Shown here in pieces: positions 14,801-20,800 of a stretch of DNA of 64,000 nt. Location of the stretch: the NCBI RefSeq assembly GCF_021134715.1, contig NC_060021.1, forward strand, positions 11,502,501-11,566,500, in the 5' to 3' direction. Origin of the DNA: Daphnia pulex. Lineage: Eukaryota; Arthropoda; Branchiopoda; Diplostraca; Daphniidae. Position 1 is the first letter of the stretch, and each line of letters begins with the position of its first letter. The notes under the pieces were generated by a model. It was not told the origin of the DNA, did not search any database, and was given only the letters and a program-made list of their open reading frames with translations. The position numbers and the translations under genes were made by a program.

Positions 14801-17800
14801 AGAAACTAACACCGCTTTAAAAAAAAAAACAGTGTTATTTCGAGGGTTTTCGTATTGCGTATTTTGGACGGATAAACTTTGAAAGTGACCGAAATACTTG
14901 GTCGATTGCCGATTGATGCTGTTGAGGAGATTTTAAGATCAGAATAATAATCCGCGTCAATCTCGTTTTCCAACACACACAAAAACAGATGTTCAGATTG
15001 ACTTTTAAAACAGAAACATTGGCAGAATCATTGGGGCCGATTGGGACCCAGCCCATTTCCAGCAAGGTTATTGGGCAATAAATGCGCCTCAAATAGTTGC
15101 CCCGTGTTTGTTTGACAATGTTTGATGATGGCCTATACTTATGTCGTTAAATTTTGATTATTAACTTGTATATTGTTACTCGATTCACGCGTTCCCCCCA
15201 CACTGGGCTCATCCAGGTTCTCAAGGTACAGTATATACAATACGCCACCCATTTAATCGATATCAATTGATCCTAAACGTAGTGCATGACATTACCCCAA
15301 TTTGATGGACGACACAACCAACACGAAACTTGTCGCGATCACGCAATAATGGATTACGGTGGTTTTCGGTAACTTTTCAGACGATGGCGGCGACGAAGCG
15401 CAATGCCGGATTGACGTCAGTTCTGCCTCGAGCCACACTCAACGACGAAGAACTGGTAAAGAATAATGCATAGAATTCATGTTGGTGGCCTGCCACGTTT
15501 GACGGACAGCCGCTCAATACATTATCGAATTGTTTTGTGCGTTCCCTTTCCCCTCCCTGTCATGCAGAAAATGCACGTCTACAAGAAAACGCTGCAGGGC
15601 TTGATCTACCCGATTTCCAGCACGACTCCGCACAATTTCCAGCCGTGGACGGCCTCCTCGCCGACCTACTGCTACGAGTGCGAGGGTCTACTCTGGGGCA
15701 TCGCTCGCCAGGGCGTCCGCTGCACCGAATGCGGAGTCAAATGCCACGAAAAGTGCAAGGATTTGCTCAACGCCGACTGTCTCCAAAGTGAGTGGCACGA
15801 ACTATAGTCAGAGAGAACGAACTAACCCGATTGTATATATAATCGATTGCACAAATGATCAAGTCTTGACACGCCTCGATCACGTCCGGCCATCACAAAT
15901 GTAATAGACTAAAATAACACGTCGCCCGTTGACTTTAGGAATCATTTTCGATGACGACGACTCCAGTTTACTGAATAATTTCATGCACATAGGTCAGAGT
16001 CTCCAAAATTCTAAAATAGCGAGCGCCGCTCGCTTGGCGCTGACTTTTATTTCATAGGAGGCCATTAGACGCATTTGCCTAAAACAACTTTGCCAGAAGA
16101 TTAAACTCTTCATCGCCCCTAATGCTCGTCTTTTGATAGATGTGCTTATGGACCATATGCTATTTGACTCAAAAGCTCATTTGAATACCCATTTAGATTA
16201 AACGATCGTTCCGCTAGTTGAAGATCTTTTCCTCGCTCAATTCCTTTCCGTCCCTTTTTCTTGACATTTTTTTTATTTTATTTTTATTTCCCTGCGCTCT
16301 TTTATTTATTTTTTTTTTTATTTATTTTGTTACTTGTTTCATTTTCGTGTATCGCGTTGGGCTTGGCGCCAGCCATCGGCATATTCGGCGTAGAGCAGAT
16401 GACGTGAATTCTCTTGTGTGTGTGTGTCTCTGTATGTGTGTCTTTTATTGATTTTCCAATTCCTTTTGAAAATGGCTTGAATTTCGCGCAAAGGGGCGGC
16501 CGAGAAGAGTTCCAAGCACGGCGCCGAGGATAAAACGCAAATCATCATCACGGCCATGAAGGAGAGGATGAAGCAGCGGGAGCGCACCAAACCCGAAATC
16601 TTCGAACTCATCCGGTACGCTTGTTTTCTTTTTTTCCCCTTTCCTCATTTGTTTTAATTTTCGCGAAAGTTTAACCAAATTAATTATCGTCGCTGCTGCT
16701 GCAAAAAAACTAACTTGTTGATAACGTGAAACCGCGACGATTCGTAATCGAATGAGAAATTACGGCGAGAAGAGTGTGTCTGCAATCTGCATAGATAAAT
16801 CGGGTTATGCAACTGTTGTGTCACCTGCACTGTGTGAATGCAGATTCGTTTCTGCGAAGCGCGAATACTGAAAGGACCGGAGCTGTGATGATGAAATTGT
16901 GGTGATATGTGAAATTTAATTTCAAATCCTCAAACGTACAAATGTATAGGGCCGTCTTCGGAGTTGAGGAACGCAGTCATAACGGTCACATGAAAGCCGT
17001 CAAGCAATCCGTTCTGGACGGGACGAGCAAATGGTCAGCTAAAATAGCTATTACAGGTCCGTCTATAAATGTTTTTTTTTTTTCAACAAATCCAGCAACA
17101 AAACCAAAACTGTTCTTGGTCGTTCCGACTGAAAACAAAACATGTTTTCGATCCTTTTCTATCTCTACTTGGCTATCACACCTTTTCTTCCCCCTCTGAA
17201 TGAATCTCAAACAAAATGATCACAAGACAATCAGAATCGTTCCTTAAAAAAAAAATAAAAAAAAATAAAAGAAAAGATTCCAGAGGAAACGCAAACCACA
17301 CGGGCACGACACAAGGGGGTCACGTAAAAGAGTGCTGGAGATGTTCCAAGAGAACTCCCACCCAATGTTTCGTTGTGCCTTAACTAGATTTCTGTAAATA
17401 GCAGACATTGACCATCGTTCCCTTTTTCTTCTATACTCTCGTACAAATAAAAACGAAAACAAGACAAAGTAGAACAAAACAAATGAACGAAATCGATCAG
17501 ATTTTCCTTTTGTTTGTTCGGTTTCTTTGTGGTTGAAACATTTCCAGCACTCGCGTCTGAAAATGGAGAAACGGCGGAACCATTTTGTTAGTACATCCTG
17601 TTTCTCATTCGTTTGATTAGAACTATACTCCATCATCGTTAATGCCAATGAATAAATCGGGGGGCGCTTCTGTTGAGCGCGGCGTGCCGTGCAATAAAAC
17701 AGACACGACGACCATCGGGAAACTTTTAGAGACGAAAGAAAAAAAAAACGAATGTAAAGCAAAACCAAAGTAGTTGACGTATCCAATCTCCCGAATTTCT

Positions 17801-20800
17801 TCCCCTCCATTCAAACTTTCTACTCTAATAACAAAGCGAGAAAAAAGCCAATCAGAAGTTGTCATGACCCCCCCAGTACTACTCTCTAGTATATACCAAC
17901 ATTAATAAAAGTAAGAAGTTCTTTTTTGGCGATTTGTTGGGAATACCAAAACCTCCTCTTTTCTCTTTTTATTTTTCGCCCCTATTTTCGGGCGACAGTG
18001 ACGAATTTTCCTTTTTCGGTGGTGCAGTAAAAACAGTAGACGTCAACAACAATGGTTCCGTAATTCTCCAACAACGTCGCAAAAACAAAAAACTAATACG
18101 TGAGAGAAACCAACCCGCACTCGGATGTGTGTAACGCACTGGAAGCGCAAGTCGTCGTGTTTCGTGCGGGGGTGCGTCCATCTGCACCAGCTGTTCATAT
18201 CACTACCTGATGGGCATATATTGGCTTTCTTTCTTTCTTCTTTTTTTTTTTCGGTGCAAAGGGATGTTATTATTATTATGTGGGGCGCTTTTCCTTTGTC
18301 TTCCTCTCATACGGAATGAAGAATCTTCGTGTCATTCAGCACTCGTCGTCCCGCCATCTTTCTATATATATATTCTATCGGTGTTTTTGTGGATTTTTTT
18401 TTTTTCGGCTGTTACATTCAATCATCGTCTCTTTCTCCTTTTTAGTATATACGTATACATCTACGTATATATATATATATATAATATTTCAAAATCCACT
18501 CTACGTATCACTATGGTGTTTGGTATAATGTGCTTTTCTCGGTGTCACGTTTTTTTTTTTAATTGACTGTTTTTTTTTTATTATTATTATTCATACGTGT
18601 TTCTTTATGTGCTTCGTTTTAAAATTATCGTGAAGTGAAAGTGTCGTGGTTATTATCCGTGTTGACGGTTTGGAACTTTGAATACCGCGGCGGAATGTTC
18701 GATACGCGTCGGCGGACCGATACTAGCAAAGTTTAACGATCGAATTGTAATAAGTTATAACATTATATGACGCCAGGGGGGGGGGGAACAGTTGAGAAGT
18801 CCACTGGTGAGTTCGAGCTCGCTCTCTGACGCGTAGACGACGGAGAGCACGCTATTGAATTCTCGTATAAATGTCGATTTTATATGCATATATATGCGAA
18901 AAGAAATCAATAATAGAGTCCGCAGTGCAGTTTGTTACGTGAGAAGCAAACAAGAAAGAGATGGAACACAAAATTGTGGAGTGGGAGGGCGCCCGAAGTT
19001 AAAATGGGACTGTAATTTAATTTTTTGTTTATCTCTCTATCTTTATTTCTCTCTTTCTCTCTCTCTGTCTTTTAATTTGGTTAACTCTTCATCGCAACAC
19101 CCGCTGTTGTGCGGCTTCTTCGGCGATCCTGCAACTCCCCATTTTATCTGAATTTCCGTTGATCACAGCGTGATATTTAATGTGGATCCCGACACCCACA
19201 TAGACTCCATAGAACAGGCTGAGTTGGCGGTGCTGGAAGGCACGGCCAACTGGTCCGCCAAAATTGCCGTCACAGGTACAAACATGAAACCAACTGAACT
19301 TAAAAAAAAAAAAACAAAAAAAACAATAAAAACAAACAAACAAAAATCATCTTTCAGTAGAGCCGTGTAGCAGACATGCCACCCCATTGAACCTTTTATT
19401 CTTTCCTTTTTTTTTAACTAACGCCAATTGATTTAAAAAAAAAGAAAAACTAAACCTTCTTCCGCTCTCCCAAATTGTCTTTCTTTTTTTATTTCCTCCC
19501 TTTTGATCTGCTGCATTTTTTATGATAATATCTCCCGCTCTCAAGTCTCCGTTTCATTTCATTTGAATCAAACGCGGTTTCCCCAGTATATTTGGTTGTG
19601 TGTGCGTGTGTGTGTGACTCTACGGATGCTTGATACTACTTATTTCATTTTTATTTTTCTTTAAAAAAAAAAAAAAAAAAAAATTATCCCTTGGAAAAAG
19701 AAACTGCCATTTATAGCACCCAATTCGAAGAACACGTTTCGCTTGGTAGGAAACAAGGGAAATGAACTTAGTAGGACATAGTGCATACGGTCTAGAAAAC
19801 ATATCGGTAGCCTTCGGCATCCCAAGTAGCTTTTCGAAAGCGCCTTTTTTTGGGCAGTTATTGATCTTTTTGATACAAAAAAAAACGTGCATGAATTTAT
19901 TTAGAACACTATCCGATCTGAACTTTGTTCGCTAGTTCCTAGTTTTTTTTCTTTCTTTCGGGGAAGCGCCGTTATTTGTGTTTCCTATTAAGAAAAAAAA
20001 TTCTAATTTTTTTAAATCGACTGTTATTGACAAGACTTTTAGCAATTTTGAAGACGTATAGGACCGTTATAGAACCATATTATGTTTGTTTGAAAATACG
20101 CTTGCGTCAAGGCTGCGCCGCCCGTCCGTGTAATAAGGAGCGAAAGAGAATCATGAAACCGGGGCTACCATCATCTAGGTGATGATGGTAGTTTTCAACA
20201 AACTGGGGGGGAACGATGAAAAATGGCTTCGTTGACATGTGAAACAGTGCACCCAATTGTAACCGTCTCTTGCGTGTTCCAAATATATATATTCCTTCGC
20301 CTACCACGGTTGATACAGCCGACAGTGCTGCATATACACAATAACCCCATGTGTGGTATATATTTCATGGCTTCGGTTGGCTGGCTGAAAGCTTGAAAAC
20401 TCCTTTCTCTCTAGCTCCGCCATCTATGCTCCTCTCAGTCCCGTCAACTTACGAATGACATTGTTTTGCATCAAAGTTACCGATCGTGACCTGTAGCCAT
20501 GCAATGGGGCATCCCCTTTCCAGGTTTTATTTTTATTTTTTTTCTAGCCGCTTTTTATTTTTTATTTTATTTTTGTAAGAGTTTCGGGGCGCTGCCTCTC
20601 GGATCGATATCATGCGAGCTCTTGCGTCAAAGACCGCCTCTCTCCTTTTCTATTCCCCGTAGCCCTTTCTTTGTCCCTTTATTCTCTTTCTCCGTCTCTT
20701 TCTCTCCTTTCCGCCTTTCTTCGCCATGTCTTGATATTCTTAACTTTTGACCCATTTCTTCAGCGCAGCATATACATAAACTGAGCATGGCTGAACGACG

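What the first reader, a model, noticed from the sequence alone, without database searches (positions are those of the whole stretch)
16950..19275. Mutually exclusive, equal-length exon pair immediately before the C2B domain of unc-13
Two homologous 107-nt exons (16950-17056 and 19169-19275) share entry and exit phase. Their products end in near-identical cores ([13 protein letters not shown] and [13 protein letters not shown]) but differ strongly upstream ([14 protein letters not shown] versus [14 protein letters not shown]). Since 107 is not divisible by three, using both breaks the frame, which enforces exclusivity. The swap changes the linker between C1 and C2B, where lipid and calcium control of priming is integrated, so it could set release properties per neuron type. 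I do not recall this pair being described in crustaceans.
Basis: partly seen in the sequence, partly recalled or inferred. Interest (0 to 1): 0.75.

Follow-up and report, generated by a model that had tools for sequence, protein, structure and literature searches.

The report
Swappable exon pair in unc-13
A small-genome animal, probably a water flea, carries two alternative versions of one short exon in its synapse-priming gene unc-13, and choosing between them would reverse the electric charge of a joint that helps control transmitter release.

Summary
In unc-13, two 107-nt exons (16950-17056, 19169-19275) share phases and AG/GT borders and encode alternative versions of Munc13-1 residues 660-694: the end of the C1-C2B linker and first strand of C2B. 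Exon a is the canonical type (25 of 35 identical to rat); exon b is diverged (13 of 35 to rat, 14 of 35 to a). Exon b looks selected: pS 0.83 against pN 0.36, 9 of 14 shared residues with different codons, no stop or indel. Either exon alone keeps the frame; both give a stop one codon past the junction, neither gives one after ten codons. Frame thus makes wrong products nonsense but does not itself make splicing exclusive. No pairing between introns beat shuffles.

New point: exon b changes net charge from +2 to -5, with Lys to Glu at 674 and 677, in a linker reported to touch the membrane. I propose a splice-chosen electrostatic setting of the C1-C2B module; that step is inference. No RNA and no second arthropod genome could be examined, so use of b and its age are untested. 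A new member of a known kind, in an interesting place.

The parts
16494..16614 (+). exon upstream of the pair (start of the C1-C2B linker, [12 protein letters not shown]...EIFELIR); ends with two bases of a split Arg codon; its 5' border is inferred from the AG before 16494
   Evidence: tblastn 77.5% identity to the Munc13-1 probe over 40 aa from 16496; matches rat 5ue8 chain; AG and frame; donor CCG|GTACGC, score below 8 of 15 constitutive donors
16615..16949 (+). intron 1 of the cluster, 335 nt; weak acceptor ahead of exon a
   Evidence: acceptor score below 14 of 15 constitutive acceptors of this gene, pyrimidine share 0.44
16950..17056 (+). exon a, 107 nt, canonical version of Munc13-1 660-694; net charge +2
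   Evidence: 25 of 35 identical to rat Munc13-1; charge; frame
17057..19168 (+). intron 2 between the alternatives, 2112 nt; too long for steric exclusion; GT-AG borders
19169..19275 (+). exon b, 107 nt, diverged version of the same segment; net charge -5
   Evidence: score 79 against a where the next of 88 comparable stretches, a itself aside, scores 1; pS 0.83, pN 0.36; acceptor score below 14 of 15 though its pyrimidine share, 0.63, is ordinary
19276..21733 (+). intron 3 of the cluster, 2458 nt, with the weakest acceptor of those scored
   Evidence: acceptor score below 15 of 15 constitutive acceptors
21734..21875 (+). first shared C2B exon after the pair ([20 protein letters not shown]...)
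   Evidence: spliced alignment, PDB match to Munc13-1, Pfam C2 PF00168
17330..17552 (+). inverted repeat inside intron 2 (arms 17330-17345 and 17537-17552, 15 Watson-Crick pairs and 1 G-U of 16); not shown to matter
   Evidence: 0 of 30 shuffles as good by one score but 4 of 120 by another

Best explanation
This is a pair of homologous, mutually exclusive exons in the unc-13 gene of an animal that is probably a Daphnia. Each transcript takes exon a or exon b. Weak acceptors at a, b and the C2B exon leave the choice open to splicing factors (inferred), and transcripts with both or neither meet an early stop codon (shown in sequence; removal by nonsense-mediated decay inferred). The choice swaps the last part of the C1-C2B linker and the first strand of C2B. 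Exon a keeps the canonical basic segment. Exon b makes it acidic (net +2 to -5; compared with a: 674 and 677 Lys to Glu, 686 Lys to Asn, 667 Arg to Asp, in rat numbering). I infer that form b weakens Ca2+-independent contact of the C1-C2B polybasic side with the membrane and shifts the balance of C1-C2B inhibition, so that cells set priming and release probability by splicing. Shown: the pair, the frame logic, the selection-like codon pattern of b, the charge change. Inferred: that b is used, that use differs between cells, and the functional effect. The confidence given is for the pair being used as alternative exons; for the charge mechanism I give 0.35.
For: Exact anatomy and frame outcomes. 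Homology far above background. Codon pattern: identity 24 of 36, 23 of 35 and 10 of 36 at codon positions 1, 2 and 3; 9 of the 14 shared residues use different codons (one of the other five is Trp, which has a single codon); pS 0.83, pN 0.36, so synonymous sites look saturated while the protein is held. No further copy in the genome. Acceptors of a, b and C2B score below 14, 14 and 15 of 15 constitutive acceptors of the same gene, while the donors of a and b score below only 1 and 2 of 15. Introns 2 and 3 (2112 and 2458 nt) are longer than the 15 trusted constitutive introns, 64 to 634 nt; intron 1 (335 nt) is within that range. Charge change. Literature: four helices make up the C1-C2B linker in Munc13-1 and contact helix H1, MUN, C1 and C2B (PMC5344669, passages); in simulation the perpendicular state touches the membrane with the sides of C1 and C2B and the linker between them, and single basic-to-acid changes in the region impair priming or raise or lower release probability (PMC8648301, passages); a worm construct without the linkers between C1, C2B and MUN escapes the C1-C2B mutual inhibition of evoked release (PMC11991699, passages).
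Against: No transcript evidence of any kind. No second arthropod sequence, so conservation of b across species is untested. No inter-intron RNA pairing clearly above chance, so no cis mechanism for exclusivity was found. The splice-site comparison rests on 15 introns of one gene, whose acceptor scores vary widely (-4.1 to 13.6), and b's pyrimidine share is ordinary. Whether residues 667, 674, 677 and 686 face the membrane was not measured; PMC8648301 names none of 674, 677 and 686 (667 not asked). In PMC11991699 all linkers were removed together, and spontaneous release without them was partly reduced rather than raised, so the C1-C2B linker is not singled out. The fly review states that Unc13A and Unc13B share an identical C-terminal region (PMC8762327), so no parallel is reported there.
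Confidence: 0.85

Rival explanations
1. Exon b is a decaying duplicate (pseudo-exon) that still looks like an exon but is rarely or never spliced in.
For: Its first 21 residues agree with a at only 4 positions and with rat at only 4; its acceptor scores low; no RNA evidence.
Against: Synonymous sites look saturated (pS 0.83) yet pN is 0.36, and 107 nt stay free of stops and length change with both splice sites intact; a neutral copy of that age should have lost this.
Confidence: 0.06
2. Exon b belongs to a transcript that starts inside intron 2 (alternative promoter), so the choice is made by promoter and not by exclusive splicing.
For: Intron 2 is 2.1 kb and could hold a start site (not searched for); fly and worm unc-13 isoforms differ in their N-termini (PMC8762327, passages).
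Against: Exon b has an AG acceptor and enters in exactly the phase left by the exon ending at 16614; a protein starting there would lack C1 and most of the linker.
Confidence: 0.05
3. The pair is mutually exclusive, and exclusivity is imposed by competing intron RNA pairings (docking site and selectors), as in Dscam or srp. This is a rival for the mechanism only.
For: A tendency of outer introns to pair with internal introns is reported for annotated exclusive clusters (PMC6071210, passages). One 16-bp inverted repeat lies in intron 2.
Against: The best ungapped helices between introns 1-2, 1-3 and 2-3 were matched or beaten in 8, 3 and 5 of 30 shuffles; the intron 2 repeat is internal and was reached by 4 of 120 shuffles under a second score; no related sequence to test covariation.
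Confidence: 0.15

Closest known systems
Mutually exclusive exons of neuronal or muscle genes (SNAP-25 exon 5, Mhc, tomosyn exon 13, slo)
   Same: One of several alternative exons per transcript, exchanging one protein segment; SNAP-25 exon 5 is described as a duplicated exon (abstract of PMC2581893 in the listing; tomosyn; slo; Mhc).
   Different: None of these is unc-13; the segment swapped here joins C1 and C2B. Transcripts of the pair described here have not been seen by me.
Unc13A/Unc13B of Drosophila, UNC-13L/S of C. elegans, Munc13 paralogues of mammals
   Same: Diversity of one priming protein that sets release properties.
   Different: Those differ in N-termini or are separate genes; the review (passages, PMC8762327) calls the fly C-terminal region identical. 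Here the change is inside the C1-C2B module.
Neural microexon of unc-13 in fly and mouse (PMC8797185)
   Same: Regulated exon choice in unc-13.
   Different: That is an exon of the eMIC programme, reported at the same position in fly and mouse (one sentence seen). Its place in the protein was not seen and it was not looked for in this window.
Munc13-1 polybasic-face mutants K603E, K720E, R769E
   Same: Charge change in the C1-C2B region alters priming or release probability (PMC8648301, passages).
   Different: Laboratory point mutations in C1 and C2B; here a splice form would change several charges in the linker at once.

Membership tests
Homologous mutually exclusive exon pair (criteria of the Kollmar group as summarised in PMC3923563) | similar or equal length | tested here: met
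   107 and 107 nt
Homologous mutually exclusive exon pair (criteria of the Kollmar group as summarised in PMC3923563) | sequence homology | tested here: met
   14 of 35 identical; tblastn E 5e-7; top of 88 comparable stretches after a itself
Homologous mutually exclusive exon pair (criteria of the Kollmar group as summarised in PMC3923563) | compatible splice sites and same reading frame | tested here: met
   AG/GT on both, same entry and exit phase, either alone stays open to the end of the C2B exon
Homologous mutually exclusive exon pair (criteria of the Kollmar group as summarised in PMC3923563) | exactly one exon present per mature transcript | not testable with these tools
   no RNA data; double and none give early stops, which is consistent but not proof
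Docking-site/selector cluster | competing complementary elements in the cluster introns | tested here: inconclusive
   no inter-intron helix clearly beyond 30 shuffles; conservation not testable without relatives
Steric or U2/U12-incompatible exclusive pair | intron between the exons too short, or mixed U2/U12 sites | tested here: not met
   intron 2 is 2112 nt; donors CAG|GTCCGT and CAG|GTACAA show no U12 consensus (U12 consensus recalled, judged by eye)
Unc13/Munc13 | C1, C2B, MUN and C2C regions in order in one gene | tested here: met
   tblastn and spliced alignment to a Munc13-1 probe typed from recall run in order from 15631 to 28494 (domain borders recalled); PDB match of the linker with a and start of C2B to Munc13-1 5ue8 at 4e-51. 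Pfam was run only on the linker and start of C2B.

The most novel reading that the evidence does not exclude
Alternative splicing installs a charge-reversed joint (net +2 to -5) between the DAG sensor C1 and the Ca2+/PIP2 sensor C2B of unc-13. A nervous system could then hold two classes of release site, with different Ca2+-independent membrane binding and different C1-C2B mutual inhibition, made from one gene without changing the N-terminal targeting part.
Probability: 0.35. Interest if true: 0.72.

Novelty: new member of a known kind. Interest (0 to 1): 0.52.

Why it matters
In the fly work seen here, Unc13 diversity is put down to N-terminal variants that place the protein at different distances from Ca2+ channels. 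A second choice inside the regulatory C1-C2B module would let cells tune how lipids and Ca2+ act on priming. It also offers a natural, matched pair of linkers for testing how this linker holds C1 and C2B in check; the studies seen here used deletions and engineered point mutants.

Tried and rejected
Relatives outside the window: a scan of genome contigs (88 pattern matches) and of viral contigs (6 pattern matches) with the C2B exon protein confirmed none; by their description these collections hold prokaryotes and viruses, so this says nothing about conservation. One search also gave four weak C2-like matches elsewhere in the genome (E 2e-4 to 9e-4, 28-56% identity), which I did not examine; none carries the linker exon.

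Literature: ten searches (one search was for the protein structure, the others for the exon pair or exclusive splicing). One search, for linker peptide words, found nothing. In what I saw, no paper describes this pair. I looked inside 13 papers by term only, not whole: PMC6025963, PMC8612732, PMC5344669, PMC8648301, PMC11991699, PMC8762327, PMC12702192, PMC3923563, PMC3228551, PMC6071210, PMC12084633, PMC8797185, PMC12634045; the other papers were seen as listings. PMC6025963 names unc-13 among genes differently spliced in fly LNv clock neurons, without naming the event in the passages seen. Supplements and FlyBase/RefSeq annotation could not be opened, so an existing annotation of this pair, in Daphnia or in insects, is possible.

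Intron pairing as the cause of exclusivity: no inter-intron helix stood out (ungapped helices of 9 or more, low-complexity arms left out, 30 shuffles). Inside introns, three matches beat all 30 shuffles: the intron 2 inverted repeat and two self-overlapping palindromes (17677-17692, 19594-19619), which cannot form a helix of that length within one strand. Under a second score that excludes overlaps, 4 of 120 shuffles reached the intron 2 repeat and 6 of 120 the best of intron 3, so I do not lean on them. Similarity between flanks: of the stretches compared (335 and 544 nt round a, 769 and 725 nt round b), only two matches of 13 and 10 nt at E 0.72. A single TGCATG (Fox-type motif, recalled) at 19888 is near the roughly one expected by chance in 5.1 kb and was not pursued.

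Structure prediction of the two spliced forms was not submitted, because the tool's text limits it to proteins read letter for letter from the DNA and a spliced product is not. In the splice-site comparison 4 of the 19 introns (starting 26021, 26183, 26534, 27291) were dropped before scoring because the alignment there was poor or the borders doubtful; the remaining 15 were used.
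Full report
What was checked. The window is G000:C5:11502501-11566500 of a 133.19 Mb assembly in 13 contigs. No call names the species; the size and contig number fit Daphnia pulex from recall. The + strand carries unc-13. C1 matches at 15631-15786, then an exon ending at 16614, the two exons of the finding, and C2B, MUN and C2C from 21734 to 28494 (the probe was mammalian Munc13-1 typed from recall). The upstream exon, exon a and the first C2B exon, read together, match rat Munc13-1 5ue8 at E 4e-51; with exon b in place of a the best Munc13-1 match is at 3e-44.

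The pair. Exon a (16950-17056) and exon b (19169-19275) are both 107 nt with AG and GT borders. The upstream exon ends with two bases of an Arg codon; each exon supplies the third base, 35 codons and the first base of a Val codon that the C2B exon completes. Frame outcomes: a alone and b alone are open to the end of the C2B exon; a then b reads ..AIT A stop, that is, TGA right after the codon that spans the junction; neither reads ten residues and then stops. So frame does not prevent double splicing, but makes its products, and those of skipping, useless.

Is exon b real? Among 88 stop-free AG-107nt-GT stretches on both strands of the window, a scores 178 against itself, b scores 79 and the next 1 (mean -28, SD 28, a and b included). 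a and b agree at 14 of 35 residues (4 of the first 21, 10 of the last 14). Codon positions agree at 24 of 36, 23 of 35 and 10 of 36. Nine of the 14 shared residues are written with different codons. Nei-Gojobori proportions are pS 0.83 and pN 0.36. Synonymous sites thus look saturated while protein, frame, length and splice sites are kept, which argues that b has long been held by selection. Each exon searched against the own genome finds only these two places.

Which is original. Exon a agrees with rat Munc13-1 at 25 of 35 residues, b at 13 of 35. Exon a is the canonical type and b the diverged one. With no other arthropod sequence I cannot say whether b is specific to this lineage or old and lost elsewhere.

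Where it lies in the protein. Counting by hand from H567, with E582, E584, K603 and K706 of the papers falling in register (the C1 stretch of the rat sequence is recalled, the rest is), the exon covers residues 660-694. That is the end of the C1-C2B linker (four helices in the crystal structure; PMC5344669, passages) and the first strand of C2B; the Pfam C2 match starts within the exon.

What changes. Net charge is +2 for a, +3 for rat and -5 for b. In rat numbering K674 and K677 (present in a and rat) become Glu, K686 (a and rat) becomes Asn, and R667 of exon a becomes Asp. In PMC8648301 (passages) the Ca2+-free, perpendicular state touches the membrane with the sides of C1 and C2B and the linker between them; K603E and R769E impair priming, K720E raises and K706E lowers release probability. 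In PMC11991699 (passages) a construct without the linkers shows evoked release as high as single-domain constructs and above UNC-13R, which its authors take to mean that mutual inhibition needs the linkers; spontaneous release of that construct was partly reduced, and the three linkers were removed together. I infer that form b weakens Ca2+-independent membrane contact and shifts the C1-C2B balance. Whether this lowers priming (as K603E does) or raises release probability (as K720E does) cannot be told from sequence. PMC8648301 does not name 674, 677 or 686, and exposure was not computed.

How the choice might be made. Using 15 constitutive introns of this gene (4 of 19 dropped), the acceptors of a, b and the C2B exon score below 14, 14 and 15 of the 15, the donors of a and b below only 1 and 2, and the donor of the upstream exon below 8. 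The acceptor scores vary widely and b's pyrimidine share is ordinary, so this is moderate evidence. Introns 2 and 3 (2112, 2458 nt) exceed the 64-634 nt of the 15; intron 1 (335 nt) does not. Weak acceptors suit regulated choice. The intron between the exons is too long for steric exclusion, and the donors show no U12 consensus. Best ungapped helices between introns 1-2, 1-3 and 2-3 were matched or beaten in 8, 3 and 5 of 30 shuffles. A 16-bp inverted repeat inside intron 2 was reached by 4 of 120 shuffles under a second score. The likeliest arrangement is factor-controlled choice plus removal of frame-broken transcripts; this is inference.

Novelty. Homologous exclusive exons are a known kind. 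For unc-13, the fly review describes N-terminal isoforms with an identical C-terminal region (PMC8762327, passages), and another paper mentions an unc-13 exon of the neural microexon programme at the same position in fly and mouse (PMC8797185, one sentence). Searches turned up no description of this pair in what I saw, but many subscription papers, supplements and gene annotation were out of reach. I rate it a new member of a known kind, confidence 0.85 for the pair as alternative exons, and 0.35 for the charge-switch reading.

Noticed in passing
window 32986-33303, - strand: Small open frame with a signal-like start and RSRR-GFKTVGLATARGFG-KR in the middle, reading like an allatotropin-type neuropeptide precursor (TARGF-amide ending; family recalled). 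Pfam gave no family at E up to 1.
   Followed up: partly
window 47880-51371, - strand: Several open frames with coiled coil and repeated DPF motifs that look like an Eps15-type endocytic adaptor, downstream of unc-13 on the opposite strand (identification from recall).
   Followed up: no
window 3527-8941, + strand: One uninterrupted 1804-residue open frame rich in Ser and Gln upstream of the unc-13 C1 exon, possibly a giant N-terminal exon of a long unc-13 form.
   Followed up: no
window 20165-20191, + strand: Short hairpin in intron 3 with arms CTACCATCAT and ATGATGGTAG; the same pairing appears, where 15 of 30 shuffles did as well or better.
   Followed up: partly
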